Shown here: positions 30,919-63,317 of the stretch, piece by piece
How positions within the stretch are numbered: the first letter of the stretch is position 1
Layout of the letters: the number at the start of each line of letters is the position of its first letter
NCBI GenBank assembly: GCA_963576725.1
Contig: OY755241.1
Coordinates: 80,573,153-80,637,152, forward strand
Direction of reading: 5' to 3'
DNA length: 64,000 nt
Origin: Azorinus chamasolen
Lineage: Eukaryota; Mollusca; Bivalvia; Cardiida; Solecurtidae
Notes under the pieces: model-generated
Seen by the model: only the letters and a program-made list of their open reading frames with translations
Told to the model about the DNA's origin: nothing
Databases searched by the model: none
Made by a program: the position numbers and the translations under genes

Positions 30919-31411
30919 AATGGCGTTATCAACACTCAGACTGCAGGATGAGAACTATCTTAATTGGTTACGTGACAGTATGGCACTCCTGTTTCTAAAG
31001 GAAGGTATTGAAGACTTCACAGACAAGAGAGTGTCAGACTTGCATGCTGATTTGCTTGGAATTGTGTCTCAGCAACTGTCTCAGCAGCAATCTTCATCCT
31101 GCAATTCCTGTACCCATCGACATGTGAAACGATACAACCGCACCTGGAGTGTTGGGTGCCCAACCAATGTCTGCAACATATGGCTGAAAGAGATCTTGAA
31201 AAAACATACAGATGCCAAAAACATTGCTCGCACCAACTTGAAGCCACAACTTTGGCCATCCCACCCCTGGGAAGTGGCCAAGTGTTTCCTTCCTCATGGA
31301 AGTGAGAATGTTGCAGCTGCCAAAGATACCGACGTGGCGGCTGCTTTGAAAATGATGTGGTCTTGTACATTCATGTACAAATTCTTCTCAGACCTCAACT
31401 TAGTGCAAGAG
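30919..31411 (+). CDS. NLR-like gene, coding exon 1 (HEPN, first part)
   Basis: TTCTTCTCCTATTTTTAG is a strong acceptor placed one base before ATGGCGTTATCAACAC, so the start codon at 30920 is preferred over the upstream in-frame ATG at 30830, which lies in a hairpin repeat. It encodes 164 residues beginning MALSTLRLQDENYLNWLRDS, rich in Trp and Cys (SCNSCTH, WPSHPWEVAKCFLP). The donor is GTGAGA. Confidence 0.85.
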
Positions 31412-34400: not shown

Positions 34401-37400
34401 CGTTTATATGAGGGAAAGGGGTAGCACGAATGTGTACCGGTACGTATATCCAACTCCAACTTCAAATGTTGAATAAAGTCTCGATGCCACGGGCGTATAT
34501 TGTGCCCACTGGTTTTCTTGAAAACTAGTTTGAAATCCAGGGAAAGAACCCATTTCAGTTCAGTGTTATCTATCCAATCACGTTATCGGCATTGGTCAGT
34601 CCTTGAACTATGATTATTTATCAGCTCTTACCTTCCAGGTCTTGAACATACGACATGCATTAATGCATTCATGTGATATGAATGTGAGTGATGCCAAGCT
34701 GCAAGATGATACAGACAAAATGATCCGACTTCTCAAAAGTTTGGTACACCTATCACCCGCAGAAACAAACACAGTGCAGAAATCAATTGACAGCATAATC
34801 GAGGTAAACTATTAGACACTTTAATAGGAATAGTCTTCTTGTGACCCGCTAGCAAAATTGTTAAAACTGTCTTTATATCTCAAAGGACCTGGCCTCAAGG
34901 GCGGACTTTAATTACTTATATAAGTATATATAAATTCTCCAAAACCGCTGGTCCAAATTGAACAGTATTATTTATGAATAATCTTTATCACAATTGCTAA
35001 AACCATGCCTTTTGGAAAAAGCGTGACTACCGTGGGTAGAGCTAAAACTTTTTATATGACTATATGTATAGGAAAACTTTAAAACTCTTCTCCAAAACTC
35101 TTGGTTCTCCAATTGTTTTAAAAAAAAACATGGCTACAGAGGGATGTGTGTGTGTGTGTGGGGAGGGGGGGGGACTAACCTCCTTGTGGCTAACTAACTT
35201 GAGCAAATTTTAAAATCATCTGTAACTATTGTCACTGACCGTTCAGAGGGGGTTCTTCGGAACTTCTTCCAGCTCCTCCCTAATATTTGTCTTTGAGCAT
35301 CTCTTTGTGTTTAGATAGTTGTGTACCCCATAACGGCTTCCCAGCAGTTGCTCTGATTTCAGCAAAGTCAGTGAGTACATAACTGCAGATTTTCCCAGTT
35401 GGTATGACATGTTTTACATATTGTCATATGTTTACTGCCTTCTATGTTGAAAATCCAGCGGGGATATCTTATTTACACTATTTGTTAATTTAAGCTAGTG
35501 TGAGGTTTGGACGTCCGTAAACCGGTTTAAACACCAAGTGGTGATTTTGCCACTGACCGTTCCAAAGTTGTACTCTGTTTGTCACCCTTACTTTTGTTTG
35601 TCTTCTGTCTTTGTGCTTTTTTTCATGTTTGGAATGTTTGTCTCTTATACTTGTGTGCTTGTTAAGGTTTTCTTTGTTCTTCTCGTGTATGTGCGTGTGT
35701 TTGGGTGTGTAGTTCTGTGTGTGACATGCTATCTATTGATGTTTTGGTGACGGTTGGGTCTTGTTTGTGGCTTTGCCTGCTTGACCTTACTACTTTTCAG
35801 CTCACCAGAGCACAAAGTGCTCAGGGTGAGCTTTTGTGATCACCTAATGTCCATCGTCTGTCGGCGTGCATCGTTCGGCGTCTGTAGTCAACAATTTGAA
35901 CATTTAAAAATATTCTCCTCTGAACCTACAAGGTTCTCAGCTTTCATCTTTGACACATAGAATCATCTGTAGGTCCTCTGTAAAAGTTGTATAAATGATG
36001 CCCCTGGGGTCAAATTGGCCCCGCCCCAGGGGTGCCCAGTTTTCACTATATGTTTCTATTGAAATACAAGGTTCTCAGCTTTCGTATTTGGCACATAGCA
36101 TCATGTTCAGGTCCTCTACAAAAGTTATATAAATTATTGCGCTGGGATCAAAATTGGCCCCACCCCAGGGGTGAATTGTTTTCTATAGAAACATATAATA
36201 AAATTTTGAATATCTTCTGTGTTCAAAATTGGCCCGCCCCAGGGGTAGCCAGTTTTCTATAAAAACATATAGTACAAATAAATATATTATCCTCTGAAAC
36301 TGAAAGGTTCTAAACTCTCATATGTGGCACACAGCATCATGTTCAGGTCTTCTACAAAAGTAAATATATAAATTATGTCCAGGGATAAAAATTGACCCTA
36401 CCCCAGGGCGGGCTAGTTTTCTATAGAAATATTTTATTCTCTGATTGTCCGTCGTCCATTGTCGTGCGTCGTCCATCGTCACCAACAATTTGAACATTTA
36501 AAAATAATCTCCTATGAATCTATAAGGTTCTCAGCTTTCATCTTTGGCACATAACATCATATTCAGGTCCTCTACAAAAGTTATATCAATTATGCCCCTT
36601 GGGTCAAAATTGCATCGCATCATGTTCAGGTCCTCTACAAAAGTTATAAAAATTATGTCCCTGGGGTCAAGATTGGCCCGACCAGGGGTGGCCAGTTTTC
36701 AATAGAAACATATAATAGTGAATACTTCAAAAATCTTCTCCTGAATCTTGAAGGTTCTCAGCTTCCATATTTGGCATATAGCATCATGTTCAGGTCCTCT
36801 GCAAAAGTTGTATGAATTATGCCCCTGGTGTCAAAATTGGCCCCGCCCCAGGGGTGGCCAGTTTTCAATAGAAACATATCGTTTGAAAATCGTCTCCTCA
36901 GAAACTGGAAGGTCCTCAGCTTTCATATTTGGCACATAGGATCATGTTCAGGTCCTCTACAAAATGTTTATAAATTATGGCCCTGGGGTCAATATTGGCC
37001 CGCCCCAGGGATAGCCAGTTTTCAACAGAAATACATAGTGAATTAAAACTTAAAAATCTTCTCTTCTGAATCTGGAAGGTTCTCAGCTTTAATATTTGGC
37101 ACACTACATCATGTTTAGATCATCTACAAAAGTTACATGTATATGAATTATGGCCCTGGGGTCAAAAATGGCCTCGCCCCAGAGGTGGTCAGTTTTCAAT
37201 AGAAACATTTAGGGAAAACTTTGAAAATCTTCTCCTCTGAAACTGGAAGGTTCTCAGCTTTAATATTTGGCACATAGCATGCATCATGTTCAGTTCCTCT
37301 ACAAAATATATATAAATTATGCCCCTGGAGTCAAAATTGGCCCCGCCCCAGAGGTGGTCAGTTTTCAATAGAAACATTTAGGGAAAACTTTGAAAATCTT

Positions 37401-40400
37401 CTCCTCTGAAACTGGAAGGTTCTCAGCTTTAATATTTGGCACATAGCATGCATCATGTTCAGTTCCTCTACAAAATATATATAAATTATGCCCCTGGAGT
37501 CAAAATTGGCCCCGCCCCAGAGGTGGTCAGTTTTCAATAGAAACATTTAGGGAAAACTTTGAAAATCTTCTCCTCTGAAACTGGAAGGTTCTCAGCTTTA
37601 ATATTTGGCACATAGCATGCATCATGTTCAGTTCCTCTACAAAATATATATAAATTATGCCCCTGGAGTCAAAATTGGCCCCGCCCCAGGGTTAGCCAGT
37701 TTTCAATAGAAAACATGAAATGAACACTTTGAAAATCTTCTCCTCTGATTGTCTGGTGGGCAATATTAGAGCCATTCTGGCTCTCTTGTTATTAAATATA
37801 CATATATGTTTCACTGTTTTCAAAGTTTCTAATGTTTTACTTCCATTTAATATAATGACAAGCGATGTTTTACGCAAGCGTAGAATGGCTGCATATCATA
37901 TGTTTAAGCTGCAGGGATAAAAGGAGATAATACAGAGAGCAACATTATTATTTAGTAATTTTAATTATGCAAGGACATGCAAAGTTTTGACCAAAGACGA
38001 TCAACTGACTACTGAAATATAAGCAACTGTTCCTCTGAACAGGAATGAGTTTTGTTCTAGCTGCTTTTGTTCTGATTTTTAGCATTTATAACAACCTTTA
38101 TGAACAATCTGGATCTAGATGAGACGCAGGGTAACTTGGCACCTCATCAGGGTTCTAACTGTTTTTCATTCTGACATTTATTTTTGAATAGATATGGAAG
38201 GAAAAAAATGCAACAGACAAGATTTGGAGACCTTAGCCCCTGCAGTGCCATAAAGACAGATCTGTAATATCATATATAGCAAACAGGTTGGATCCAGATG
38301 AGAAACCCAATAACACGGTGTCTCATCAGGATCTAAACTGTTTGACATCCTGTTTATATTTTTATGAAGACATAGAACAAACATGCATTCCATAACTTGA
38401 AGCAGACGAAAATATGACTAGTAGATTACAATTATGGCACTGAAAGGGTAAGGTAAATTGCTCAGATTGGAGTACATAATGCTTGAACATACCTGCAAAT
38501 GACCTGCATAATGTTAACAACACATCAAACATCAAACAGTTCTTAGGTATTAATAAGGCTAAGCGAAAACTGAAAATATTGCAGCTGGGTTTTTCTTGAG
38601 TGTACATCTGCAGTGTAGTCTTGCAGCAATAATTGTTATTTTGAATTTCAATAAAAAAAATGCACGACTGCTGGGGGAAATGTATTACAATCCAGTAAAT
38701 AAATGCAATAGAATTGAATACAAGTTGGAATTTTCTATCACACATTTAAATGAAAAATAATCTGGCCGTAAATCATGGGAACTTTCAACTCCCATCAAAG
38801 TGTGGCTGCGGTGATAGCCTCAGCCACTAATGAGAAACAGCATAGTATATTTTTCAGAGATCGATATTTTAAGTCCGAGTGAAATGTATTATTTGATTAG
38901 ATACTTGAAGGAAAACTTATTGCAATACATATAAATGAAACTCAATAATTAGCATATATCATTCAATCATGTCCTTGAGCCTCGGATTATACTGTATAAC
39001 AAAAACTTGTTAATATTTTAGCTCCGTTCCAAAAGACTGGATGTTACTCTTCATAAAGAAACGATTGTTCTTAGCTCACGCATGCATGCGGTTGAGTCGG
39101 AGCTTGCAACTCACAGGGTCAAGTGCAGCGACTACGAAACCAATTCACGCCAGGACCTCACTAAATCCTCGGAAGATTTAAAGGCTCTTGAAAATGATTA
39201 CAAACAGACAAAGGCAGAGATGACTCAGGTATTTTAACATTGTTATGAACTTGTGTTAATCATTTATAAGCTAGAACTTGGATAAATTGGCGATATTGTC
39301 AAAACTTCTTATAACACTTTAGTAAGTTGAGCTGTTTGGATTGCCCTGTGTCATTATTTGTGTGCTGTCAGATGTCCGTCAACGATTTCTTAAACCACTA
39401 CATGTACAGTTTAACTTCGATATCTCGAACTTCGGGATAACTCGAACTTCGGGATAACTCGAACTAAAAGTTCGGTCCTTCCAAAATCTTACAATACAGA
39501 ATTTCTCTAAAATGTATCACTACACATATCTAGAAACACATTTCACAGCTGAATGCAGTTCTACAGTAATGCTGAAAGCTCCTGCAGGAGCTTTCAGCAT
39601 TACTGTAGACCTGCATTAAGCTATGAACTTGAGAAATTGTCCAGATTCTAAGTCTGATAACTCGAACTTCTATTATCTCGAACTAATTTATATAGTCCCT
39701 TGAAGTTCGAGTTATCGAAGTTCAAATGTACCTGGATCAGATTTATATAAACGGTCCCGGCTTGCTGCATAATTGGACTACAATAAACGGTCCCGGCTTG
39801 CTGCATAATTGGACCGCAGTAAACGGTCCCGGCTTGCTGCATAATTGGACCGCAGTAAACGGTCCTGGCTTGCTGCATAATTGAACCACAATAGCTAAAA
39901 TAGATTTAGTGAACAATTTATTAATCCCCCATCGCATAGAGGAGGGGGGTTATAGGAATGGCCTTCGTCTGTCTGTCTGTCTGGCTGTCCGTCTGTCTGT
40001 ATGTCTGTCCGTTACAATTTCGTGTCCACTCCATATCTCCTATACCCCTTGAAGGATTTTCAAGAAACTTGCCTCAAATGTTAACCATGTTCAGACAATG
40101 TGCAGAACATATGTGGCAGATATGTTGGCTCAAGGTCAAGGTCACATTTGAAGGTCAAGGGTTTTAACCTTCAATTTCCATTGCATTTTTGTGTCCGCTC
40201 CATATCTTCTAAACCCTTTGAAGGATTTTCATAATACTTGAGTCAAATGTTAACCAAATTAAGACAATGTGCAGAACACATGTGGCAGTCATGTCGGCTC
40301 AAGGTCAAGGTCACATTTGAAGGTCAAGTGTTTAAACCTTCAGTTGCCATTATATTTTGTGTCCGCTCCATATCTTCTAAACCATTTGAAGGATTTTCAT

Positions 40401-49400: not shown

Positions 49401-49465
49401 TATTATGATGTGATACATGTTTGTTAACCATATTATGTTTTCTGTTTGCCGAAATAAATCAATAA

Positions 49466-49506
<41 letters not shown>

Positions 49507-52500
49507 AAGCTAACCCTTCCGACACTTATGCAGCTTTTCTTAATCTAGACCTCAAAATTAACAATTAAATGATTTCTTCTAAAATATATGACAAAAGAGA
49601 TGACTTTTATGTTAATATTGTACATTTCACTTATCTTAACGGAGATGTTCCCTGTGTCCTATCTTACGGGGTTTGTATATCTCAACTTATTCGTTTGGCT
49701 AGAGCATTTTAACTGAAAAGCTGCTTAAGCAAGGATATAGATACCATAAACTAAGAAAAACATTCTCTAAATTCTATTATCGAAATAGCTTACTTATTGG
49801 CAAGTACAAATGTAATATAAAGGCTTAGATAACCCTTTCTTTGATGTTTTGATTCCTTTCATTTGCCCAACATAACTCAAATTGAATACAGCTAATCCTT
49901 CCTGCACTTATGCAGCGTTTCTTGATTTAGACCTTATCATTGATAATGGAATGATTTCTTCTAAAATTTATATTTTCGTTTTACATGCACTTTACCACTG
50001 TATTTGCCATCGCGGTTGTTGTATATTAGAGGGGATGTGTGTATTTACACTGTTTGTCTTTTAGGGTGGGGATGGAATAAGTGTTAGGTTGGGCACTCCA
50101 TACGGGGAAGGTGGAAGTACTGCCTTGGAACTGTCAGTGGCAAATGTCACTGGGCGGTTCAACCAGTTTAGGGGCGCCCAACCTCACACCTATTCCATCC
50201 CCCTCCTAAAAGACAAACAACGAAAATAAACGTATCCCCTATCCGACTAATGTACAACAACCGCACTGGCAAATACAATGGTAAAGTGCATGTAAACCGA
50301 AAACATATTTAAGTGCAACAAATTATCAACCTATTGCTAATGTACTCAATGATTGAGCTGCAAACAGAGTAACTGTAGAAAAGTAATAAAGTTGAGATTT
50401 AGATATTGTGATTTAAATCTGGTGTACATATACAGTGCTCCCTACTTACAACAACACCCTTTGGGACACGAAAATTGTAGGTGTTGTTCAGAGGGAGTTG
50501 TTATAGGGAGGGAAAATCAAACATAATTAGCTTGTTTGCAGATCCCCAGATCGTGTGTATTTCGATAACTAAAACCGTTATACCTCAATCAAACCCTATG
50601 TTGTGACCACTCTAGAATCGTCACAAAGTGACGACTCTAAATAGTGGTCACAACATAGGGTTTGATGGAGGCATAAAGAAAATACAATGGAAAAAGGTTT
50701 TTTCTGGAGCCTTGTTGTTTCGGAAACAGTGACATGCGTTGTTGTAAGGAGGGAATCATTATTGAGAGGACCGTTGAAGGAAGGGAGCACTGTAATTCCA
50801 CAGAAACATGTTTAGGATTACATCTTGATGAAGTTATTGATTGAAGGCCAAAGTCACTAATAGTGAAACTAGGTGCTGTGGCTAATTTCCTGTTTGATGT
50901 TAGTAATAATGTAATTCAATTACTTGTAGCTTCAAGAAATAAAGGACAGATTTGAAGAGTTTCTGCTGAAAAATGATCTGACTCAAGATGTTGCTAAACT
51001 GTCAACAACGTTACAGGAACACGGTCAAAAGTTCGATCTCCTTGGGCAGAAGTTTGACCTTCATGATCAAAGATTGTCTGCACTTGAACAAAAAGAGAAG
51101 GTAAGTACACAACAACGACCTTTATTAAGAACTAAAGCTATCAATGTTTACTTCATATTTACAATTACTTGATCACTCAAGAGATGGGTAGGCAGTGGTC
51201 TCTTAATACAATTATGTAAATTTACCCAAAACTAAGAAGTAGACAAAGGAAGGAAATACTCTAGTCTGCTTGTCTGTTTGTACAAGATACAAGATACAAG
51301 AAACTTTATTTATAGTCGGGTGTTACAGAATAACATTAACTTTTGTAGACCTTATTTCTAGCTTCCATTTTCTATGGAAATAATTATAAATGCACCTATA
51401 AATTTACATTTGAGTCTGACTGCTGTCAACATCAAGTTCAATGATTGGCGTTGTCTTGTCCTTCGTCCATTGTTAACAACATTTTAAATGATTTTTATGC
51501 CCCCATAGACGATAGTCGGGGGGCATATTGTTTTTGCCCTGTCTGTTTGTCTGTTTGTCTGTTTGTTTGTCAGCAACTTTAACATTGGTCATAACTTTTG
51601 AGCCAGTACAGATAGAGATTTGATATTTGGCATACATATGTATCTCATAAAGCCGCACATTTTGAGGGGTGACGTGTCAAGGTCAAGGTCATCCTTCAAG
51701 GTCAGAGGTCAAATATATGGGTCAAATCGCCGACTTTAACATTGGCCATAACTTTTGGACCAGTAGAGATAGAGACTTGATATTTGGCATGCTTGTGTAT
51801 CTCATGAGGCTGCACATTTTGAGGGGTGACATGTCAAGATCAAGGTCATCCTTCAAGGTCAGAGGTCAAATATATGAGGGGGCATAGTGTTTCACAAACA
51901 CATCTTGTTTAAGAATGGTCAGCAGGTGACCCTCTATCATATTGTATAAATCGTTCTGATCCACTTCATGTTTTGTTTATTAGCTCACCTTGCACGAAGT
52001 GCCAAGGTGAGCTATTGTGATCACCCTGTGTCCATCGTCATTTGTCGTCAGTCCGTTGTCTGTCGTCAACTTTTTCTTCAAATGACATCTCCTAAACTAC
52101 TTGCTGGAATTTTACCAAACATGGCAGAAATGTTCCTTGGGTCAACCACTTCAAAATTTGTTCATAAACTTTGATTCCATGTAGAACTCTGGTTGCTATG
52201 AAAACCAATGTCCAAAAAAGTAAAAACTTTAAAAATCTTGTTTTCAAAAACTGAAAGGCCAATGGCTACCAAATTTGGTATGTAGAATCATCTAGTGGAC
52301 CTCTACATAGATTGTTCAAATTTTGCCCCTTGGGTCAAAATTGGCCTAACCCCGGGGGTCACAGGTTTTACATAGGATTATATAGTGCAACTTTGAAGAT
52401 CTTCTTGTCTTAAACCGAAAAGATTAGAGCTGTGATATTTGGTATGTAGCATCATCTGGTGAACCTTTACTAAGATTGTTCAAATTATGCCCCTTGGGTC

Positions 52501-55500
52501 AAACACGGCAACACCCTAGGGGCCAAATGTTTTACATTGGATTATAAAGTAAACACTTTAAAAAAAAATTCTTGTCTCAAATCTGAAAGGCTTAGAGCTG
52601 TGATATTTGGTATGAAGCATCATCTGGTCAACCTTTACTAAGATTGTTTAAATTATACCCCTGGGGTCAAAATTATCGTCACCCTGGGGGTCACACATTT
52701 TACTGAAAACTTTAAAATCTTCTTGTCAAAACCTGTAAGGCCTAGGGCCACCACATTTGGTATGCATAATCATCTAGTGGACCTCTACATAGATTGTTCA
52801 AATTTTGCCCCTGGGGTCAAATTTGGCCCAACCTCGGGGATCCTAAATTTTACATAGGATTATACATATATAGTAAAAACTTTAGATCTTCTTGTCCAAA
52901 ACTGAAAAGCTTAGAGCTGTGATATTTGGTTGTAGCATCATCTGGTGAACCTTTACTAAGATTGTTCAAAGTATGCCCCTGGAGTCAAACACGGCCACAC
53001 CTTGGGTGTCACATATTTTACATTGGATTATATAGTACTCTCACGTTTATGTATATCAGCCTGCTCTCTCTGGTTTATGTCTGTCAGACTGTCTCTCTCT
53101 GGTTTATGTCTGTCAGACTGTCTCCCTCTGTTTTATGTATATCAGACTGTCTCTCTCTGGTTTATGTCTATCAGACTGCTCTCTCTCTGGTTTATGTCTA
53201 TCAGACTGTCTCTCTCTGGTTTATGTCTGTCATACTGTCTCCCTCTGTTTTATGTATATCAGACTGTCTCCCTCTGTTTTATGTATATCAGACTGTCTCT
53301 CTCTGGTTTATGTCTGTCAGACTGTCTCTCTCTGGTTTATGTCTGTCAGACTGTCTCCCTCTGTTTTATGTATATCAGACTGTCTCTCTCTGGTTTATGT
53401 CTATCAGACTGTCTCTCTCTGGTTTATGTCAATCAGACTGCTCTCTCTGGTTTATATCTATCAGACTGTCTCTCTCTGGTTTATGTCAATCAGACTGCTC
53501 TCTCTGGTTTATGTCTATCAGACTGTCACTCTCTGGTTACGTCTATCAGACTGCTCTCTCTATCAGACTGTCTCTCTCTGGTTTATGTCAATCAGACTGC
53601 TCTCTCTGGTTTATATCTATCAGACTGTCTCTCTCTGGTTTATGTCAATCAGACTGCTCTCTCTGGTTTATGTCTATCAGACTGTCACTCTCTGGTTACG
53701 TCTATCAGACTGCTCTCTCTATCAGACTGTCTCTCTCTGGTTTATGTCTATCAGACTGTCTCTCTCTGGTTTATGTCTATCTGACTGTCTCTCTCTGGTT
53801 TATGTCTATCAGACTATCTCTCTCTGGTTTATGTCTATCAGACTGTCTTTCTGGTTTATGTTTATCAGACTGTTCTTTGATTTATGTCTATCAGACTGTC
53901 TCTCTCTGGTTTATGTCTATCAGACTGTCTCTCTCTGATTTATGTCCATCAGACTGCTCCCTCTGGTTTATGTCTATCAGATTGCTCTCTATGGTTTATG
54001 TCTATCAGACTGACTCTCTCTGGTTTATGTCTATCAGATTGCTATCTGGTCTACGTCTATCAGGCTGCCCTCTCTGGTTTATGTTTAACAGACTGCTCTC
54101 TCTCTGGTTATGCCCCAACATAGTGGTGGCATATAGGATTGGCTTTGTTTGTACGTCCGTACGCACATCTAAAGTTTGTCCTGGCTCTTTCTTGGAAAAT
54201 ATTTGTTGAATCCATACCAAACTTTACACACAAGTTTGTGGCCATTATATCTTGGTCAAATTCGATAAGCATATACAATTTTTTGAGTTGCGGCCCTTTA
54301 TTTGCAACAAAAAAATTGGAACTGAGGGCATCAGTGTCCTATGGACACATTTCTCGTTATGTCTCCCCCATTTGTAATGGGGAGACATACTGCTTTTGGT
54401 CGAGTTGTCCGTCCGTCCATCTGTCTGTCTTTCACACTCATGTCCGCTCCATATCTCTCATAAATATGGAAGGATTTCAAAATGATTTGACACAAATATT
54501 GGACTCAACAAGATGATGTGCAGATCAGGTCAAGGTCACAGTTCAAGGTCAAATGTTTCAACCACACCCTTCCTGTCCGCTCCATATCTCTTAAACCCTT
54601 GGAAGGATTTCAAAATGATGTTGCACAAATGTTCTTCATAACAAGGCGATGGCAGACAGCAGGATTCAGGCACATTCTTCAAAGGTCAAGGTCACAGTTC
54701 AAGGTAAAATGTTTTAGCCTTAATTTTCATTTCTGCTCCACATTTGTATAATGCTTCGAAGGATTCCAAAATGCTGTGGTACAAATGTTCTTCTTAACAA
54801 GCCAGTGTGCAGACAGAAGGATTTAGTCAAGTGTGTCAAAGGTCAAGGTCACAATTCAAGGTCATGATCACAATTTAAGGTAAATTATTCACACTTTCTT
54901 GTCCGTATGATAACTTCCAGATGGCTAATGTCATTTGATTGAAATTTCATACATTGACAGAGCATGATGAGAGGAAGTGTCATGTATAAGGGTCATAACT
55001 CTGGCTTCCATTCTTTTGGAGTTATTGCCCTTTGTTACATTTTTGTCCGATCAATAACTCCTGCTCTACTGATGCTATTGGAATGACAATTCATGTATTG
55101 AAAGAGCATGATGGAAGGAATGTGGTGTACAAGTATCATAACACTGGCTTCAATAATAATAGAGTTTTTGCCTTCTATTTTCTGCAGAGTGATGGGACTT
55201 TGAAATGTTTACATGGAAATTTTGTCCGCAGGGTTATTTTCAAAACCTTTATTTTGATATTTATGAAATTTGCTTGGTTGGCATCATGCCTAGTTGTGCA
55301 TATCTTATTCCTGTTCCCGTTTGATGAGTTATGGGACTTTTTGAAATTTTGTTTTTGGATATTCATGAAACTTCTCACCTCTCTTCAGAATTCATAGGAT
55401 TAAGCAGCACAATGCCTAGTTGTGCTCAGTTCTTTTTTTCTGATTTTCTGCAGAGTTATGGGACTTTGGAAAGTTTGTCCAAGCGCTGGGGGAGACATCA

Positions 55501-58500
55501 GCTTTTGTATTAAAAATAATTCTGGTTTATGTCTATCAGACTGCTCTGTTTTGTTTGTCTATCAGACTGTCCTCCCGGGTTTATGTCTATCAGACTGCTC
55601 TCTCTGGTTTATGTCTACCAGACTGGCTCTCTCTGGTTTATGTCTATCAGACTGTCTCTCTCTGTTAGACTGTTCTCTCTGGTTTATGTCTGTCAGACTG
55701 CTCTCTCTGGTTTATGTCTGTCAGACTGCTCTCTCTATCAGACTGTCTCTCTCTGGTTTATGTCTGTCAGACTGTCTCTCTCTGGTTTATGTCTATCAGA
55801 CTGTCTCCCTCTGGTTTATGTCTATTAGACTGCCCTCTCTGGTCTATCAGACTGCTCTCTCTGGTTTATGTCTATCAGACTGCTCTCTCTGGTTTATGTC
55901 TATCAGACTGTCTCTCTCTGGTTTGTGTCTGTCAGACTGTCTCCCTCTGGTTTATGTCTTTCAGACTGCTCTCTCTGGTTTATGTCTATCAGACTGCTCT
56001 CTCTAGTTTATGTCTGTCAGACTGTCTCTCTCTGGTTTATGTCTATCAGACTGTCTCTCTCTGATTTATGTCTATCAGACTGTCTCTCTCTGGTTTATGT
56101 CTATCAGACTGTCTCTCTGGTTTATGTCTATCAGACAGCTCTCTCTGATTTATGTCTATTAGACTGTCTCTCTGGTTTATGTCTATCAGACTGTCTCTCT
56201 CTGGTTTATGTCTATCAGACTGCTCTCTCTGATTTATGTCTATCAGACTGTCTCTCTCTGGTTTATGTCTATCAGACTGTCTCTCTCTGGTTTATGTCTA
56301 TCAGACTCTCTCTCTCTGGTTTATGTCTATTAGACTGCTCTCTCTGATTTATGTCTATACAACTGTCTCTCTCTGGTTTATGTCTATCAGACTGTCTCTC
56401 TCTGGTTTATGTCTGTCAGACTGTCTCCCTCTGGTTTATGTCTATCAGACTGTCTCTCTCTGGTTTATGTCTGTCAGACTGTCTCTCTCTGATTTATGTC
56501 TATCAGACTCTCTCTCTGGTTTATGTATATCAGACTGTCTTTCTCCGGTTTATGTCTATCAGATTGCTCTCTCTGGTTTATGTCTATCAGACTGTCTCTC
56601 TCTGGTTTCAGTCTATCAGACTGCTCTCTCTGGTTTACGTCTATCAGACTGCTCTCTCTGGTTTATGTCTATCAGACCGCTCTCTCTGGTTTATGTCTAT
56701 CAGACTGTTTCTCTGGTTTATGTCTATCAGACCGCTCTCTCTGGTTTATGTCTATCAGACTGTCTCTCTGGTTTATGTCTATCAGACTGCTCTCTCTCTG
56801 GTTTATGTATATCAGACTGCTCTCTCTCTGGTTTATGTCTATCAGACAGCTCTCTATGGTTTATGTCTATGAGACTGCTCTCTCTATCAGACTGATCTCT
56901 CTGGTTTATGTCTATCAGACTGTCTCTCTCTTGTTTATGTCTATCAGACTCTCTCTTTGGTTTATGTCTATCAGACTTCTCTTCCTGTTTGCAAAAGTGT
57001 TAAGCGGCACGTCTGTCAGATGAAGTGTTTTCTCATTATGCCATGAATATTCATGAGATCATAAATATTAATTAAAATAACCTTTAAAATGATACATAGC
57101 CACCAGAACATTCGGCCATGATAGAAACATATCTGTATTAAATGTAATTAGTTTGAATTAAGGGTAGTGAACAAGTTTTCCAGGGTTCAAGAGTCCGGGG
57201 TTTAACTGTATTTTATAAGCAAACCCTTAGGATCAGAGAGCTCCTGCAGAATCTATCTGATCAGAGTCTACGCTGTTTGCAACGGCATAGAAAGGCATAT
57301 GTATTAAGTAAATGATTAAGATTTAAAAAAAAATACATAGTTCCATGTAGTCCAGTGTTCACTCGTTATCAGGATATTAAGTGTTTTAATTGGTTGAATG
57401 TGTTTAGTCTTACCTGTTTGACTACTCATATAAGGAATAGTGACACCATGAAACTATTTTCGAACTGAATTGATATACAATGAAGTAAATATTCCAAATA
57501 GGGAATTTATATAATACATAAATACTTAAACTGCTCTGATCTAATATTTCGACCACTAAGGGCCTTTTTCAAAGATTATCATGACATGATAATCTTTGAC
57601 AAAGGCCCTTAGTGGTCGAAATATTAGATCAGAGCAGTTTAAGTATTTATGAATTGATATAATATCATATGTACATAGTGTTTTATGATTTTCAATTTGG
57701 TAGATCTATTTTAGTTTCAAAAGCATAGAAATCAGACCCTAATCAGATGGCTCCATAGTTCCTGAGTTCTGTAACTCGCTCACTCATTCACTGTTAATGA
57801 AGAGTAACAAGAGTGTTTGGAGGAGCACATGTGTCACCTGCTGGCAGCTAACACAAAATAAGTGACACACTGCCTCTCGGCAGGTGACACAAAAACTGGT
57901 TTGGATTTAATGAAAACCAGGCGGGATACATGTGGCCCAATAAATCTATATTTACATTCTAGGACAAAGAAGACACTACTGCTGGTAGAGCTGTTTGTAG
58001 CTGGGAGGAGCAGTGCAATTGTAAGTACAGTAAGGGTCTAGGTGAGTTGGTACAGTGCTCCCTCCCTACAACGGCCCTCTCAATAACGATTCCCTCCTTA
58101 CAACAACGCATGTCACGGTTTCCGAAACAACAAGGCTCCAGACAACTTTTTTTCCATCGTAGTTTCTTTATGCCTCAATCAAACCCTATGTTGTGACCAC
58201 TCTTTAGAATCGTCACTTTGTGACGATTCTAAAGAGTGGTCACAACATAGGGTTTGATTGAGGCATAACGGTTTTAGTTCTCGAAATACACCTTATCTGG
58301 GGATCTGCAAATTAGCTAATTATGTTTGATTTTCCCTCCCTATAACAACTCCCTCTGAACAACACGTACAATCTTCGTATCCCAAAGGGTGTCGTTGTAG
58401 AGAGGGAGCACTGTATTGCCATTTGTGTTATAACTATCACTATTTTGTCTGAGCATGGATATTTGTCAATTTTGTATCTCAAAAGTCAATTAAAAGTAAA

Positions 58501-61500
58501 TCAAAAGTTAATCATTATGTAGTCATTCCTATTGATCACCTCTCTTTAGAACTTCCATCTTCCCCCTATTGTATGTTTGTTTTGTCTTTGTGCGTCTTTT
58601 GATGTCCGAAACAACAAGGCTCCAGACAACTTTTTTTCCATCGTAGTTTCTTTATGCCTCAATCAAACCCTATGTTGTGACCACTCTTTAGAATCGTCAC
58701 TTTGTGACGATTCTAAAGAGTGGTCACAACATAGGGTTTGATTGAGGCATATCGGTTTTAGTTCTCGAAATACACCTTATCTGGGGATCTGCAAATTAGC
58801 TAATTATGTTTGATTTTCCCTCCCTATAACAACTCCCTCTGAACAACACGTATAATCTTCGTATCCCAAAGGGTGTCGTTGTAGAGAGGGAGCACTGTAT
58901 TGCCATTTGTGTTATAACTATCACTATTTTGTCTGAGCATGGATATTTGTCAATTTTGTATCTCAAAAGTCAATTAAAAGTAAATCAAAAGTTAATCATT
59001 ATGTAGTCATTCCTATTGATCACCTCTCTTTAGAACTTCCATCTTCCCCCTATTGTATGTTTGTTTTGTCTTTGTGCGTCTTTTGATGTTTTTATAGTTA
59101 TGTACATTTGCTGTTTCCTTGTGTTGCTGTTTTGGCGACTGTTTGTTCTGTATTTGGTGTTTCCTGCATGACTCATTTTTGTACTTTTACAATCTTTACA
59201 ACAGCAGGTGTGGCGGCAGTAAAACGTCGTCCCATACTTCATTCTCAGAGTTGGTATACTTTCTGATCCTTCGAGATCATGAATTGCAGTACTTTTTGTT
59301 CTGAAAATTAAATACTGCTTAAGCTGATGCTAGGGAGCGTGAACAGTGTTGCACTTTCAATTACTGCTCATGATCAGACTCAATAAAACAGTGTCTACAA
59401 TTTTCTCTTTTTGTATTGCAATGTTTGCTCTCGGGGAAACACCTCTCTTCAGAACTGTTATACTCATGTTGTACTTGCCAGTAAGTGGGTGATTTGGATA
59501 ATAAAACTTAGAGAAAGTGTTTCTTAGTTTATGGTATCTATATCCTTGCTTAAGCAGCTTTTAAGTTAAAATGAGATTTCGACTGTTAAAATCGTCAAGA
59601 CTAATCTGATAATCAATATAACCAATATACGTGGGAAGTGGTACACGCTCGCACCAATGACTTATTGGCAATTTTTGAAAAGTAGTTTGAATCTGACACC
59701 TGTTCTTTTAATCCCTTACAACTGCATTTGTGCTTTCCATTAGCTGTATAGTGTAAATAAAAAGTTTTAGATAATTAAATTATGGTGTATTTTTGCATAC
59801 AATTTGAAGTGCGTATAAGTATTATACACTATACTCTGCATAAAAACGAGGCAAGTCAATATATTTTCAGAACTTCATTATAATTGATCTTAACCCTTCA
59901 CTTGCTGTTCACGTCAATATACCTACCTGTAAATAGTGAAGACTTAGATGAGACAGCTCCTGCAGGAGCTGTCTCATCAGGGTCTGCACTATTTACAAGT
60001 TGATTGTGCAACCAGTGCACTCCACAGCAGTGATTGCACAGCGAATTACTTGTACACAATGAAGATATATATAATTATACAACAGGGCATGGATAAGGAA
60101 GGAGAAATGTATTTTAAAATCCAGCAAGAGAAGGTTTAAATTCTTTGTTGAATATTTTCAGGACAGTAACCTGCTACTCAAAATAAAATAACATTTCCAA
60201 ACAGCATTGTTCCAGATCAGACTATTGAGTAATTAACAAATGAACTCCCAGACATGATTGCTTGGTTATTTTGGTTGATTAACTAAGTTATTTGATTGAT
60301 ATTGCTATCTGCAGTGTACCCACTATTCGGATTATACTTACTTTGATGGGTGGAAGTTTCATTGCCTAATATCCATCGGTGTGTTTTGAGGTTGATAACA
60401 GTTTCCCCTGTGTTATTTATAACTCCAAGGCAAGTCCCGCATGATTTATAGAATTCTGAATGGTCATTGGTCAATTATATTTAGCATATTTATACTTAGA
60501 TTTTGAATTTGGCTACAGTGGAAATTTTTTGTATGATCATTTATCAGCATAGTTAGTACTTTCCGAATAATGACGAATAGTATTACCCATGTCTTACGGT
60601 GATCGCCGACCATATAAAAGTACATGTATGAGTCATGCAGGAAACACCGTGCCAAGGCGGGGCTCTCTTAGTCACCCCTACTTTTGCTTGTCACAAGGTA
60701 TTATGGGTTGTGACAGAAACTTTGTAATCATATCCATATTATGTCATAAGCATATAGAACAGACCCTGATCAGAGCGCTTCTACAGACACTGTCCGATTT
60801 GCTATATTATGTTTGCAAAGGTACCAGAAGTCATCTAGATGAGGAAGAGGGTTAATCCATATAAGTATTTAGACTTTTCTTGACTTTATTTCAGCTGTAC
60901 AACAGTACCTCATTGAGATATACCAGACAAAGTGCTTGTGGGAAAATCCGATGACAACTGACCAACAATGTATTCCAGATATTTATGTGCCACCTGCTGT
61001 AAAACTAATGAGGGAGAAAGACGAACATGGTGGATTGGAAGAGGTGATAAGGGAACAGTCCGAGCCGTTGCATCAAAGCTATCAACAGATCTTCTCTTCT
61101 CGGTCTGGGCCATGTACAAATGTATACATTACTGGAGACGCTGGGACTGGAAAAACTACATTTTGTAACCAGATGGCTCTCGCCTGGTGCGAGGCAGTGA
61201 AGACTGTCCGTGACAGGGCAGTTTTAGCAGAAGATCTTACAGTTCTGTCACATTTTAAATTCCTGTTTTATATTAATTTGAGAGACACTGGGGCAATCTA
61301 TCATATTGAAGACATGCTTAAAAAGTTTATGAAATATGCTCCATTCTCTGTAGACATACCCACTTTACTGAAAACCGAGAAATGTTTGATTGTTCTTGAT
61401 GGCTTGGATGAGTGGTCTTGTCCAGATGAGACAAAATGCCCAGGTTTGAATGAACATATACCGGGCAGAAACATAATGAATAAGAACTGTGTCTTTCTTA

Positions 61501-63317
61501 CTACATCAAGAAATTGGAAGTATGATGTTAGTGATCTGAAAACAAAAGATGTAGATAAATACATAGAGTTGTGTGGCATTAGTAAGAAATCCTCAGAAGA
61601 ACTGGCTCAGAAATTGGTTGGTTATCTAGATAAGAAATCACAAAGAACAACAAAAACAAATATTGGTACCTTTCATACAGAAATACACCAGAGAAAGCTG
61701 TCTGACCTTATAACTGTGCCAGTTCTTTTGATACAGTTGGTAACTCTGTGGTATTGTGGCAAAGACTTTGGTAACACACAATTACAGTTGTACTGTAGTA
61801 TGCTAGATCTGCTGTTTGAACGGTCTCGGAAAAGAATGTCTGAAAAACAGTTAGAAAGTACATGTACAGCTGCTAACAAACAGGAAATGCTGCTTCCGGA
61901 ATGTTTCAGTTCAAAGGACTACTGCCACAGTCATGCAGAGTTACTACTGTGCTTATCTAAGTTGGCATATAAGTCTCTGTTTAACAAACAAATGGAAGAA
62001 GCTTTGGTCTTCAAAAGTTCGAAACTTGATATTTTTGGAATTTCTCAATCAGATATCAACCTTTGTTTACAATGTGGCATTCTATCTCAAAATAAGGATT
62101 TTGGTAACTATACAGGAAAATATAAAAAGTTATCATTTTTGCACAAAACAATGCAAGAATTTCTGGCAGCATTACATATAGTCACTGTTCAGCCTGTTGA
62201 AAAAACCTTGGAATGTCTGAGAGAATTCTGTAGTTCAATAGATGTAATGATAGAAATGTCTCAAGTTTGGCTGTTTGTGTCTGGGATGAGTCCTGACATA
62301 ATGAAACAGTTGTTGAAACACTTCACTAGTGTTATCAATGCTGACAAACGGATACAAAACTACAGACAGAGTTTACGTGACTGGTCAGGAGAACGTTTGA
62401 TACAAGACATACAGGCATTTGTGGCTGATTGTGTTGTTGAAGGTCGAAATAATGGCCACACATACGAAAACATCGGTTTAGAAGACTTGTATATTGACAA
62501 ACACACTTTTAGACATGTAGAACGCTTGTTGCCAGGCAAAATATCGTCATGTATAAAGTCCATGTACATAGACGACACTGGCGTGATGACAGTTGACCAG
62601 TTAAGATGTATAACTGGTCTCTTACAACACAGTCGGACAGCTCAAAAATTGCACCTACATGACCTTGAGTCACGTATTACCAGAGAGACACTGACAACAT
62701 TCTTACAAAACTGTTGTAACCAGTTGACAAGTTTAGACTTGTTCCGAGTAATACTAACAGAGAGCGGAGTGACTTCAATATGTCATAGTATCAGCGAGTG
62801 TTTAATGGCACTCAGGCTGGGTGGGGTTACACTGACTCATGCAGATAAAGTAAAACTGTTGGCCGGGTTTTCACAGTCAGCCATCATTAAACAGTTAGAC
62901 CTATTGTTAGACTGTTCAGACCATGACGGACAGTGTAGACCTCGTATAGACTTGTCTTCTATGGCACAGTTACAGACACTTAGGTTATGGTTCATGTGTA
63001 TAGATAATCTACCGACCATGACACAATGTGTGGAGAGGGTTTACCTGGTGGGTGTTACATTTTCAGTTACGACTCTGTGTGAGTTTGCACGGAGGATTTC
63101 ACCGACAAAACGCCACTTAAAGGTAACACTAGACAGTGTTACAGTTAGAGAGGGGAATGAGGACCATGTAGACCTTGAGACTTTCCTCCGTGGTTGTCCC
63201 GGTCTGACAGTGACACGCTTCATGTACTACGACAGTTACAACACAGGGTTCATAGACTACGAGCATGATGACTATTTCAACACATGGTTAATACGCTTCC
63301 ACACAAACAAACAATAA
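30919..63317 (+). CDS. HEPN-coiled coil-NACHT-LRR protein (NLR-like), six coding exons
   Basis: Joining 30920-31411, 34639-34803, 39022-39228, 50930-51100, 57963-58020 and 60895-63317 gives one open frame of about 1171 residues; all introns are GT-AG. Residues 1-219 resemble the DZIP3-like HEPN region found in many bivalve NLR-type proteins, with R169-HALM-H174 fitting the R-x4-6-H motif of HEPN ribonucleases. Residues 220-345 are charged, heptad-like coiled coil. The NACHT NTPase follows: Walker A GDAGTGKT (445-452), Walker B LIVLDGLDE (529-537), sensor-like VFLTTSRN (564-571) and FLHKTMQEFLAA in the winged-helix region (779-790). From about 890 to 1150 is a leucine-rich repeat-like region. 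There is no signal peptide, so it is probably cytosolic. The proposed role, an innate sensor that oligomerises and acts on RNA, is inference. Exons 1-4 all end in phase 0. Confidence 0.88.
31911..33327. mobile_element. Pearl-like element with nine units of about 145 bp
   Basis: The 5' hairpin CCCCCTTTTGAAAAAATGGGGG is followed by (GGTC)n-type sequence. Nine units start near 32060, 32200, 32350, 32500, 32650, 32793, 32938, 33081 and 33230, each with GGTTGGTCATGACAA and TCACTAGGTCAAAGGTCAAG. The 3' end has ACATGTTTTACAAACAT then CTCTTGTT. It lies in NLR intron 1. Confidence 0.72.
33400..33905. repeat. Inverted dispersed repeat and a 63-bp triplication
   Basis: 33400-33600 matches the 9285-9625 family on the other strand. 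33755-33905 holds three copies of a 63-bp unit containing AACAAACCAAATTGTCTGCC, followed by a pearl-type AACATCTCTAACTCAAGTTC. Confidence 0.65.
34205..34425. mobile_element. P1-type MITE, left hairpin arm deleted
   Basis: CCCTTTCTCTGTTCTAAG to GAGGGAAAGGGG. Only the right arm CTAGGAGCCGTCTGATCTGG remains (34351-34370), so no hairpin can form. Confidence 0.65.
34639..34803 (+). CDS. NLR-like gene, coding exon 2 (HEPN motif exon)
   Basis: 55 codons, phase 0-0, acceptor TTACCTTCCAG and donor GTAAAC. It starts VLNIRHALMHSCDMNVSDAK. R-x4-H here is the putative catalytic pair of the HEPN fold, and two amphipathic helices follow. Confidence 0.85.
35799..37790. mobile_element. Pearl/Helentron-like element, second AGCTCACC copy
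   Basis: The same 5' hairpin as 27134 (AGCTCACCAGAGCAC...GTGCTCAGGGTGAGCT), then tandem units of about 165 bp. Three units at about 37185-37690 repeat at exactly 169 bp and are nearly identical, a recent local expansion. The 3' end is AGAGCCATTCTGGCTCTCTTGTT. It lies in NLR intron 2. Confidence 0.75.
38103..38345. repeat. Pair of 'GGATCCAGATGAG' hairpins
   Basis: Two hairpins in the same orientation, at 38103-38165 and 38285-38345. Each has one arm reading AGATGAG and the other CTCATCAGG. In NLR intron 2. Confidence 0.65.
39022..39228 (+). CDS. NLR-like gene, coding exon 3 (coiled coil)
   Basis: 69 codons, phase 0-0, acceptor AATATTTTAG, donor GTATTT (weaker than consensus). Highly charged helical sequence, e.g. 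SRMHAVESELATHRVK and SEDLKALENDYKQTKAEMTQ. Confidence 0.82.
39405..39730. mobile_element. Tigger-like MITE, 'TTCGATATCTCGAACTTCG' variant
   Basis: It opens TACAGTTTAACTTCGATATC and closes TTATCGAAGTTCAAATGTA. The perfect central palindrome includes AAAGCTCCTGCAGGAGCTTT and TACAGTAATGCTG with its inverse. It is just after coding exon 3. Confidence 0.75.
39748..39892. repeat. 36-bp tandem repeat, four copies
   Basis: Unit with AACGGTCCCGGCTTGCTGCA and TAATTGGACCGCAGT, four consecutive copies with few changes. Because 36 is a multiple of 3, the reverse strand stays open and gives a false 76-residue frame. Confidence 0.88.
39922..40520. mobile_element. Pearl-like element, 3' end missing
   Basis: The hairpin CCCCCATCGCATAGAGGAGGGGGG and (GTCT)n are followed by three units of about 170 bp with TTGAAGGATTTTCA and GGCTCAAGGTCAAGGTCACA. 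Confidence 0.6.
41288..41485 (-). pseudogene. Possible retroelement coding fragment
   Basis: The reverse strand is open for 65 codons (KIDSLSVILG, KLDILLIEIRDIFLSKCKE). The composition resembles the C-terminal tail of LINE polyproteins but I cannot match it with confidence. It is flanked by the dispersed 9285-type repeat. Confidence 0.3.
41823..42022. mobile_element. TTAA-type MITE, family P2, diverged
   Basis: ACACATTCCCTCCTAG to AGGAGGGAATGAGTTAA, with the hairpin GAAACCATTGATAGAGC and its inverse around TTTGCTCAATAGTAGCAATT. Confidence 0.7.
42418..42668. mobile_element. TTAA-flanked MITE, family P1, best copy (251 bp)
   Basis: TTAACCCTTTCCCTGTTC to GAGGGAAAGGGTTAA: a 10-bp inverted repeat CCCTTTCCCT next to TTAA at both ends. 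The hairpin at 42563-42628 has arms AAACAGAGCAGACCCTGATC and GATCTGGGTCTACTCTGTTT around GGCTCCTCTAGGAGCC. It is the reference for the other P1 copies. Confidence 0.9.
43537..44460 (+). pseudogene. Retroelement reverse transcriptase fragments (Penelope-like?)
   Basis: 43537-43770 is open (KWCRRKNVESNGLS, HEHLLPPKPRISF-like). 43979-44015 encodes DFSTLYTTLP. 44280-44390 encodes AFFTDEQMKYLTNWTCSEAL and LLDNLF. 44410-44462 encodes QVIGIPMGKNCAQMVADLL across a frame change. I recognise this order from a retroelement protein common in bivalves; the class name is tentative. It is broken by frameshifts and cut at 44463 by a pearl-like insertion. Confidence 0.6.
44463..44860. mobile_element. Pearl-like element inserted in the retroelement
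   Basis: The hairpin ATACGCCGTTTGAAAAGACGAGACGTAT and (GTCT)n are followed by two units with AACATCTCTAACTCAAGTTC. It starts exactly where the reverse transcriptase frame is lost. Confidence 0.6.
45202..45345. repeat. Long perfect hairpin, 'CTGCTCTGATCTAATATTTC' family
   Basis: Arms of about 60 bases, AATATTTCGACCACTAAGGG and CCCTTAGTGGTCGAAATATT, meet at TCATGTCTTGACATGA. A sister hairpin is at 57517-57651. Confidence 0.85.
46617..47372. mobile_element. Pearl-like element with 43-bp tandem core
   Basis: The 5' part has AACATCTCTAACTCAAATTC. About twelve 43-bp units follow (46703-47262) with TATGTATATCTGGACATGCT and GTGTGTCC. The 3' part ends GTGCCCTCCGACACACTTGTTTTT. Because 43 is not a multiple of 3, several frames stay open and give false Cys/Trp-rich proteins. 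Confidence 0.8.
47868..48076. mobile_element. Tigger-like MITE inside the LINE
   Basis: TATAGTAAAACTCCGCTAAT and TTAGCGGGGTTTCACTGTA flank the perfect hairpin GCATTAAGC...AAAGCTCCTATAGGAGCTTT. It splits the LINE coding region. It has the best-preserved palindrome of its family. Confidence 0.9.
48874..49102. mobile_element. TTAA-flanked MITE, family P2, inside the LINE 3' region
   Basis: TTAACCCATTCCCACATA to GCGGGAATGGGTTAA. The perfect hairpin GAAACCATTGTGATAAATA and its inverse surrounds TTTGCTCCTATTGGAGCAAA. It sits between the LINE stop and its simple-repeat tail. Confidence 0.88.
49506..49975 (+). pseudogene. Retroelement C-terminal fragments, two copies
   Basis: 49508-49712 encodes ANPSDTYAAFLNLDLKI, SSKIYDKRDDFYVNIVHF and VCISQLIRLARAF; 49720-49825 encodes LLKQGYRYHKLRKTFSKFYY. 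A second start of the same segment is at 49882-49970 (ANPSCTYAAFLDLDLI). This is the downstream part of the retroelement at 43537-44460. A reverse-strand piece of the same is at 59460-59590. Confidence 0.65.
49972..50304. repeat. Foldback of the 9285-type dispersed repeat (333 bp)
   Basis: Arms running inward from TTTTCGTTTTACATGCACTT and its near inverse meet near 50140. The arms include GTATTTGCCATCGCGGTTGT, which elsewhere occurs as single, non-inverted copies. Confidence 0.75.
50431..50794. mobile_element. TA-flanked MITE, 'CAGTGCTCCCT' family
   Basis: TACAGTGCTCCCTACTTACA opens and GGAAGGGAGCACTGTA closes. The core is the CAAACCCTATGTTGTGACCA hairpin at 50582-50670. The ends again resemble pogo/Tigger-type. 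A sister copy is at 58051-58415. Confidence 0.82.
50930..51100 (+). CDS. NLR-like gene, coding exon 4 (coiled coil with heptad repeat)
   Basis: 57 codons, phase 0-0, acceptor TTACTTGTAG, donor GTAAGT. It contains the heptad series HGQKFDL-LGQKFDL-HDQRLSA. It is separated from exon 3 by an 11.7 kb intron of repeats. Confidence 0.85.
51496..51910. mobile_element. Compact complete pearl-like element (415 bp)
   Basis: The hairpin TATGCCCCCATAG...GGGGGGCATA and (GTCTGTTT)n are followed by two core units of about 150 bp with GGTCAAGGTCATCCTTCAAG, then GGGGGCATAGTGTTTCACAA and CATCTTGTTT. It is short enough to define both ends of the family. A further copy starts at 63777. Confidence 0.72.
51982..53037. 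mobile_element. Pearl/Helentron-like element, third AGCTCACC copy
   Basis: The hairpin AGCTCACCTTGCACGAAGTGCCAAGGTGAGCT and a GTCC-rich stretch are followed by about six units of roughly 165 bp with TTTGGTATGTAGCATCATCT. It merges into the 29-bp minisatellite at about 53038; no 3' hairpin is seen. Confidence 0.65.
53038..54110. repeat. 29-bp minisatellite array 1
   Basis: The unit is TCTCTCTCTGGTTTATGTCT followed by ATCAGACTG, with variants CCCTCTGTTTTATGTAT and units shortened by one or two bases. About 37 units. No unit contains a stop in any + frame, so all three frames stay open for hundreds of codons (the longest is 427). In NLR intron 4. Confidence 0.92.
54108..54357. mobile_element. 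Short pearl-like element with both hairpins
   Basis: The 5' hairpin is TATGCCCCAACATAGTGGTGGCATA, with GTACGTCCGTACGCAC downstream, and the 3' hairpin is GTGTCCTATGGACAC followed by ATTTCTCGTT. It has no tandem core and lies directly against the minisatellite. Confidence 0.6.
54359..55515. mobile_element. Pearl-like element, 'GTCTCCCCCATTTG' type
   Basis: The hairpin ATGTCTCCCCCATTTGTAATGGGGAGACAT and (GTCC)n are followed by units with CATATCTC, AGGATTTCAAAATGAT and CAAGGTCACA. A second unit type (about 54960-55500) has TTCATGTATTGAAAGAGCATGATG-like sequence. The frames at 55032-55397 have no recognisable domain and run through this repeat. Confidence 0.55.
55516..56985. repeat. 29-bp minisatellite array 2
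   Basis: About 50 units of the same repeat and orientation as array 1, open in all three + frames. The two arrays are separated by about 1.4 kb of pearl-type elements, suggesting those inserted into one longer array or that the array was copied. Confidence 0.92.
57517..57651. repeat. Long perfect hairpin, second copy
   Basis: Arms AAATACTTAAACTGCTCTGA to its inverse, meeting at ATCATGACATGAT. It is more perfect than the 45202 copy. Confidence 0.87.
57963..58020 (+). CDS. NLR-like gene, coding exon 5 (linker)
   Basis: A 58-base exon between TTTACATTCTAG and GTAAGT, encoding DKEDTTAGRAVCSWEEQCN plus one base. It shifts the phase from 0 to 1, so skipping it would put the NACHT exon out of frame. 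It is short, hence less certain than its neighbours. Confidence 0.72.
58051..58415. mobile_element. TA-flanked MITE, 'CAGTGCTCCCT' family (365 bp)
   Basis: TACAGTGCTCCCTCCCTACA opens and GAGAGGGAGCACTGTA closes. The core hairpin (58171-58265) is perfect: TATGCCTCAATCAAACCCTA and inverse around GTCACTTTGTGAC. It starts 31 bases after the donor of coding exon 5. Confidence 0.88.
58121..59088. repeat. Exact tandem duplication of 484 bp
   Basis: 58121-58604 and 58605-59088 match with only a few base differences (e.g. CATAACGG versus CATATCGG; GTACAATC versus GTATAATC). The unit covers most of the MITE plus part of the dispersed repeat to TCTTTTGATG. It must be very recent, or could be an assembly error. 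In NLR intron 5. Confidence 0.9.
59890..60139. mobile_element. TTAA-flanked MITE, family P3 (250 bp)
   Basis: TTAACCCTTCACTTGCTG to CAGCAAGAGAAGGTTTAA. The hairpin apex is ACAGCTCCTGCAGGAGCTGT. It is the same length as the copy at 8392-8641. In NLR intron 5. Confidence 0.87.
60700..60856. mobile_element. Decayed P1-type element beside the NACHT exon
   Basis: It has GAACAGACCCTGATCAG and a weak opposite arm, ending GAGGAAGAGGGTTAA 38 bases before the exon 6 acceptor. Confidence 0.5.
60895..63317 (+). CDS. NLR-like gene, coding exon 6 (NACHT and LRR)
   Basis: The acceptor is TTGACTTTATTTCAG. The exon completes a Ser codon and runs 806 further codons to TAA. It holds the whole NTPase module and the C-terminal leucine-rich part (e.g. 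LTSLDLFRVILTESGV, LQTLRLWFMCIDNL). There is no ATG in the first 50 bases; the region upstream of Trp380 is exon sequence in frame, so this is not an independent gene. It is much more codon-like and stop-free than anything else in the window. Confidence 0.95.

What the first reader, a model, noticed from the sequence alone, without database searches (positions are those of the whole stretch)
30919..63317. NLR-like receptor with a putative RNA-cleaving HEPN effector
Six exons assemble in frame into HEPN (R169-x4-H174), coiled coil, NACHT and LRR-like parts. HEPN R-x4-6-H motifs form the active site of many RNases, and NACHT proteins oligomerise on sensing ligands. Together these suggest an innate sensor that cuts RNA when assembled, analogous in logic to HEPN-carrying NTPase defence systems in bacteria. 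The domain order is seen in the sequence; the mechanism is inference.
Basis: partly seen in the sequence, partly recalled or inferred. Interest (0 to 1): 0.8.

Follow-up and report, generated by a model that had tools for sequence, protein, structure and literature searches.

The report
Clam NLR with CXorf38-type HEPN domain
A clam-like genome carries an immune-receptor-type gene whose front end is a possible RNA-cutting domain of a kind already described in print, so it is a good new example rather than a new system.

Summary
The gene looks real and its main parts are as described. Exons 1 and 2 (30920-31411, 34639-34803) join in phase into a 219-aa domain with R169-x4-H174. The last exon (60895-63317) encodes NACHT plus an NLR-type C-terminal half; its predicted fold matches NLRC4, NOD2 and NLRP3 (best Foldseek E 1.5e-21). 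Exon 4 has good coding support, exon 3 weaker; exon 5 could not be fixed. The head is not DZIP3-type HEPN but CXorf38/DUF4559 (Pfam E 8.6e-40) with an inserted Cys cluster; Swt1-like HEPN also matches, below its cut-off. Seven of 24 homologues, from four named bivalve genera and one unnamed source, carry DUF4559+NACHT. The CXorf38-HEPN/NACHT fusion and the RNA-degrading idea were published in 2013 (PMC3710099); 45 of 99 Corbicula 'NLRP' genes carry DUF4559 (PMC8298618). Against a simple RNase reading: at the aligned arginine column R is kept in 2 of 8 sequences (this one and P0008); any Rx4-6H string nearby is present in 4 of 8. Verdict: new member of a known kind; catalysis plausible for this copy, unproven.

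The parts
30920..31411 (+). Exon 1: codons 1-164, N-terminal part of the CXorf38/DUF4559 HEPN-class domain, with the Cys cluster (C61, C64, C80, C85) and the WEVAKCF region
   Evidence: Pfam PF15112 E 4.8e-29 on the ORF; four cysteines invariant in 8 of 8 aligned sequences; donor GAG|GTGAGA
34639..34803 (+). Exon 2: codons 165-219, contains R169-H-A-L-M-H174
   Evidence: AG acceptor CTTCCAG, donor GAG|GTAAAC, phase 0 to 0; with it the PF15112 match runs over profile positions 1-194 and rises from 102.3 to 137.5 bits
39022..39228 (+). Probable exon 3: 69 codons, helical linker
   Evidence: open, AG..GT, phase 0 to 0; coding score reached by 4 of 65 null segments: moderate
50930..51100 (+). Exon 4: 57 codons, coiled-coil-like linker
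   Evidence: donor AAG|GTAAGT; coding score above all 138 null segments
57963..58041 (+). One candidate for exon 5 (26 codons plus one base); not established
   Evidence: phase 0 to 1, acceptor TTCTAG, one of 30 candidates that passed loose filters; coding score +0.21 per codon
60895..63317 (+). Exon 6: NACHT NTPase, helical domains and LRR-like C-terminus, ending in TAA
   Evidence: PF05729 E 7e-9; P-loop GDAGTGKTT and LIVLDGLDEW aligned with 23 relatives; model pLDDT 79.1, best PDB match NLRC4 E 1.5e-21

Best explanation
This is one gene of the bivalve CXorf38-HEPN/NACHT receptor family, about 1,180 residues. A NACHT-LRR-like module holds the protein closed until the C-terminal part meets a ligand of infection or damage. 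Nucleotide exchange then drives oligomerisation, the coiled coil brings the N-terminal HEPN domains together, and HEPN dimers act on RNA (cleavage in copies with R-x4-H, such as this one). Shown here by sequence or prediction: domain order, the exon 1-2 junction, NLR-like predicted fold, the same fusion in other bivalves, intact R/H pair and P-loop. Inferred: ligand sensing, oligomerisation, HEPN dimerisation, RNA cleavage, immune role.
For: PF15112 E 8.6e-40 and Swt1-like HEPN (PF18731) E 2.2e-4 on residues 1-219; DUF4559+NACHT in 7 of 24 hits; NLR-like fold. The relative P0008, which has R184-N-E-L-L-H189, is predicted helical there, with the motif at the end of helix 174-188 and followed by helix 197-211 (10-residue block pLDDT 83-94 over 171-220), and with long helices in the linker (242-284, 290-350). 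HEPN_DZIP3-NACHT proteins with RNxxxH (P0007, P0011) are among the NACHT relatives, P0011 inside a starred clade (99/97) with DUF4559 forms, as expected if the two HEPN types can serve as alternative heads. The 2013 analysis calls the CXorf38 family active (PMC3710099).
Against: R at the aligned motif column is kept in 2 of 8 sequences; 4 of 8 have no Rx4-6H string nearby. The Swt1-HEPN match is below Pfam's curated cut-off (21.9 versus 27.5 bits) and was found for 2 of 8 members. Profile-profile comparison with DZIP3-HEPN gave probability 4% (E 0.01), though it put the two motifs in register. No solved structure of the domain was found by sequence, and the fold searches were filled by NLRs, so the HEPN fold was not tested; in the P0008 model the Cys insert (51-100) and linker (241-350) are low confidence (block pLDDT 39-52 and 47-69). 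No transcript; exon 5 unresolved; 26 kb lies between exons 2 and 6. P0011 has a long branch, so its place in the tree is unsure.
Confidence: 0.6

Rival explanations
1. The CXorf38-type head in these bivalve NLRs is mainly a non-catalytic assembly or RNA-binding domain (helical bundle plus Zn ribbon) that recruits partners; R-x4-H in this copy is a leftover.
For: Six of 8 aligned members have G or S at the arginine column, while the histidine column is kept in 7 of 8 and the four cysteines in 8 of 8; 4 of 8 have no Rx4-6H string nearby.
Against: The window's copy and P0008 keep R and H in register; P0009 has an R-x4-H string one residue out of register and P0002 an R-x6-H ending on the same H, so at 22-27% identity the column count may overstate the loss. 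The 2013 paper calls the family active. The window's domain scores higher against PF15112 (137.5 bits) than the five relatives scanned with scores shown (51.7-84.9 bits), so it may be the more conservative copy.
Confidence: 0.24
2. Two neighbouring units, a CXorf38-like gene (exons 1-2) and a separate NACHT gene (exon 6), mistakenly joined across 26 kb.
For: Exon 5 is unresolved and the interval holds tandem arrays and a retrotransposon-like fragment.
Against: Seven relatives carry both domains in one protein in the same order, with the part matching exon 6 starting at residue 291-391, against about 346-373 here; exon 2 ends on a GT donor before the next stop; exon 4 scores as coding.
Confidence: 0.08
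3. A decaying copy of the family, not expressed.
For: Large introns full of repeats; exon 5 not found.
Against: Five exons are open with usable splice sites, and the P-loop, Walker B and R/H residues are intact.
Confidence: 0.05

Closest known systems
CXorf38 family of Swt1-like HEPN domains fused to NACHT/DEATH (Anantharaman et al. 2013, PMC3710099; passages read)
   Same: HEPN with inserted Zn ribbon, fused to NACHT; the same proposed logic linking NACHT to RNA degradation
   Different: the passages name cephalochordates and cnidarians for the NACHT fusion; this one is of the bivalve type, with an NLR-like C-terminal half
DUF4559-bearing 'NLRP' genes of Corbicula fluminea (PMC8298618, section 14 and one other passage read)
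   Same: NACHT plus DUF4559 in a bivalve; 45 of 99 members
   Different: what I read there does not mention HEPN or a catalytic motif
DZIP3/hRUL138-like HEPN-NACHT proteins of Pinctada fucata (PMC9646362, passages read)
   Same: HEPN head, NACHT, LRR or other repeats; Rx4-6H motif (194 of 202 in that paper)
   Different: another HEPN family (PF18738); the motif is nearly universal there but not in register among the DUF4559 heads compared here
Vertebrate NLRs (NLRC4, NOD2, NLRP3)
   Same: NACHT, helical domains and C-terminal half share the predicted fold
   Different: a HEPN-class domain in place of the CARD or PYD known from those proteins (recalled)

Membership tests
CXorf38/DUF4559 (PF15112) | match to the family profile above the curated cut-off | tested here: met
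   137.5 bits versus cut-off 27; covers profile positions 1-194 of 305
CXorf38/DUF4559 (PF15112) | Cys cluster (Zn ribbon) inserted in the domain | tested here: met
   C61, C64, C80, C85 invariant in 8 of 8; zinc binding itself not tested
HEPN superfamily | R-x4-6-H motif at the expected place | tested here: met
   R169-x4-H174 in this copy; at the same columns R in 2 of 8 and H in 7 of 8, any nearby Rx4-6H string in 4 of 8
HEPN superfamily | HEPN helical-bundle fold | tested here: inconclusive
   P0008 head predicted helical apart from a low-confidence insert; PF18731 match below cut-off; fold searches were filled by NLRs
HEPN superfamily | RNase activity | not testable with these tools
   needs an assay
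DZIP3/hRUL138-like HEPN (PF18738) | match to PF18738 | tested here: not met
   no PF18738 match listed up to E 1 for the window's domain, while P0007 and P0011 match at 4e-32 and 1.6e-14
NLR (NACHT-LRR receptors) | NACHT domain with intact P-loop and Walker B | tested here: met
   PF05729 36.2 bits versus cut-off 26.7; motifs aligned
NLR (NACHT-LRR receptors) | C-terminal leucine-rich repeats | tested here: inconclusive
   alternating helix/strand and NLR match over the chain, but no LRR family among the 17 Pfam families listed
Bacterial HEPN-NTPase defence proteins | match to a defence-system profile | tested here: inconclusive
   only weak PADLOC matches, best E 0.0099; the likeness is of logic, not shown homology

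The most novel reading that the evidence does not exclude
In bivalve CXorf38-NLRs several heads have lost the HEPN arginine while a few, including this one, keep it. Assemblies could then be mixtures of sensor NLRs with dead HEPN heads and a few catalytic executor NLRs, a division of labour like the sensor/helper split known for plant NLRs (recalled), with RNA cleavage as output.
Probability: 0.1. Interest if true: 0.65.

Novelty: new member of a known kind. Interest (0 to 1): 0.36.

Why it matters
If the RNase step is real, some animal NLRs carry their own nuclease, a parallel to bacterial HEPN-NTPase defence and to RNase L. In the passages I read, the 2013 prediction for CXorf38-NACHT proteins had no biochemical test. 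This copy, with R and H intact beside relatives that lack R, would be a good pair for such a test, and could bear on human CXorf38, which the 2022 and 2025 papers call uncharacterized (PMC9623088, PMC12196990: titles and starts of abstracts in a listing; in the second a term search for RNase, HEPN, DUF4559, domain and interferon found none).

Tried and rejected
DZIP3 assignment: rejected. Search with the 219-aa domain: 149 candidates, none at E 0.001 or better. Search with the 8-row domain alignment: one hit of 2444 candidates, P0025, a 172-aa fragment that stops near the end of exon 1, so no full single-domain CXorf38 protein was obtained and motif conservation outside bivalves was not tested. 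Sequence search of solved structures: nothing meaningful for the domain (best E 0.75), nothing for exon 6 at E 0.01. tblastn of exon 6 against phages: no match. Fold searches of the P0008 model: the 50 rows shown by each are NLRs and a few other NB proteins; no HEPN entry is named there, which says nothing about the fold. Linker exons could not be placed by homology: tblastn of relatives' linkers gave no credible match. Profile comparison with DZIP3-HEPN: probability 4%. Hairpin 5' of exon 1 as a gene-specific control element: not pursued, since 18 such palindromes lie across the window. Script faults: one search had too strict a splice filter and listed nothing; the tblastn steps returned nothing (usage error shown); rerun.

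Full report
What was checked. The window reads as a repeat-rich animal genome; the relatives found are bivalve where named, so a bivalve source is likely, but no record names it. Exons 3 (39022-39228) and 4 (50930-51100) are open and in phase; exon 4 has a consensus donor and a coding score above all 138 null segments, exon 3 is reached by 4 of 65 (trained on exons 1, 2 and 6; the 29-base arrays and the exons were left out of the null; both exons had been picked for helical content, and the null is not corrected for that). Exon 6 starts at 60895 after TTTATTTCAG with two bases of a split codon, so an unseen exon 5, or another acceptor, must supply one base; I could not fix it. The total comes near 1,180 residues if exon 5 is about 26 codons, close to P0002 (1173) and P0005 (1189).

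Relatives. One search with exon 6 gave 24 proteins at E 0.001 or better (only the 7,991 best-sharing candidates were scored); 7 of 24 carry DUF4559 and NACHT (Ruditapes, Mercenaria, Mya, Dreissena, and one unnamed source), 2 of 24 carry HEPN_DZIP3 and NACHT (Ruditapes, Mactra). On a tree of the NACHT region of 24 rows (the window plus 23 of the 24 hits; P0024 was left out of the alignment), the Mactra DZIP3 form sits in a starred clade (99/97) with four others, three of them DUF4559 forms. This suggests that HEPN heads of two kinds have been exchanged on one NACHT type; that row has a long branch, so this is tentative. The window's own row is in no starred set of up to half of the rows.

The motif. 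At the two columns of R169 and H174, R is present in the window and P0008 (2 of 8), and is G or S in P0002, P0003, P0005, P0009, P0013, P0020; H is present in 7 of 8. Counting any Rx4-6H string near the motif, 4 of 8 have one (window, P0008, P0002 as R-x6-H, P0009 in another register) and 4 of 8 have none (P0003, P0005, P0013, P0020). Identity to the window is 22-27%, so single columns should not be pressed hard. The two DZIP3-type heads both have RNxxxH. By itself R-x4-H is common: 653 of 2000 shuffles of this domain contain it.

How it most likely works. Domain order, junction and fold are shown by sequence and prediction. Sensing, ADP/ATP-driven opening, oligomerisation, HEPN pairing and RNA cutting are inferred from NLR and HEPN biology. 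I put 0.6 on the whole reading for this copy and 0.24 on a non-catalytic head.

What is known. Anantharaman et al. 2013 (PMC3710099, passages read) defined the CXorf38 HEPN family with an inserted Zn ribbon, listed fusions to dsRBD, NACHT, ankyrin, CARD and DEATH, and proposed degradation of cellular RNAs or targeting of viral RNAs. The Corbicula genome paper (PMC8298618) counts 45 of 99 'NLRP' members with DUF4559. The pearl oyster paper (PMC9646362, passages) describes DZIP3-HEPN/NACHT expansion with Rx4-6H. A full-text search for DUF4559 found 2 papers (passages of both read), and for CXorf38 together with HEPN 1 paper; no biochemical test of the domain was seen in the passages read. The library lacks most subscription journals. 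So the finding is a sound new member of a known kind.

Noticed in passing
window 57502-57666, 45209-45330, 58160-58276, 58644-58760, 30731-30835 and 13 more places: Eighteen long near-perfect palindromes (arms 25-82 nt, loop 0-3 nt) in several sequence families, probably foldback or MITE-like elements; one lies 85 bases 5' of the exon 1 ATG.
   Followed up: partly
window 30735-30831 compared with 58168-58268: Two palindromes with related arms differ from each other yet each stays 94-100% self-complementary, so changes are matched on both arms.
   Followed up: no
window 58121-59089: A 484-base unit in tandem, two copies 99% alike, before the last exon.
   Followed up: no
window 53038-54109 and 55521-56982: Two large arrays of a 29-base unit that stay open in several frames and yield long spurious ORFs.
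   Followed up: no
window 47598-48739 +: Stretches that look like the reverse-transcriptase and C-terminal part of a non-LTR retrotransposon (YADD-like motif at about 47.7 kb); recognised by eye, no Pfam match for 48164-48736.
   Followed up: no
P0007 and P0011: DZIP3-type HEPN-NACHT proteins whose NACHT parts are related to DUF4559-type ones, hinting at exchange of heads.
   Followed up: partly
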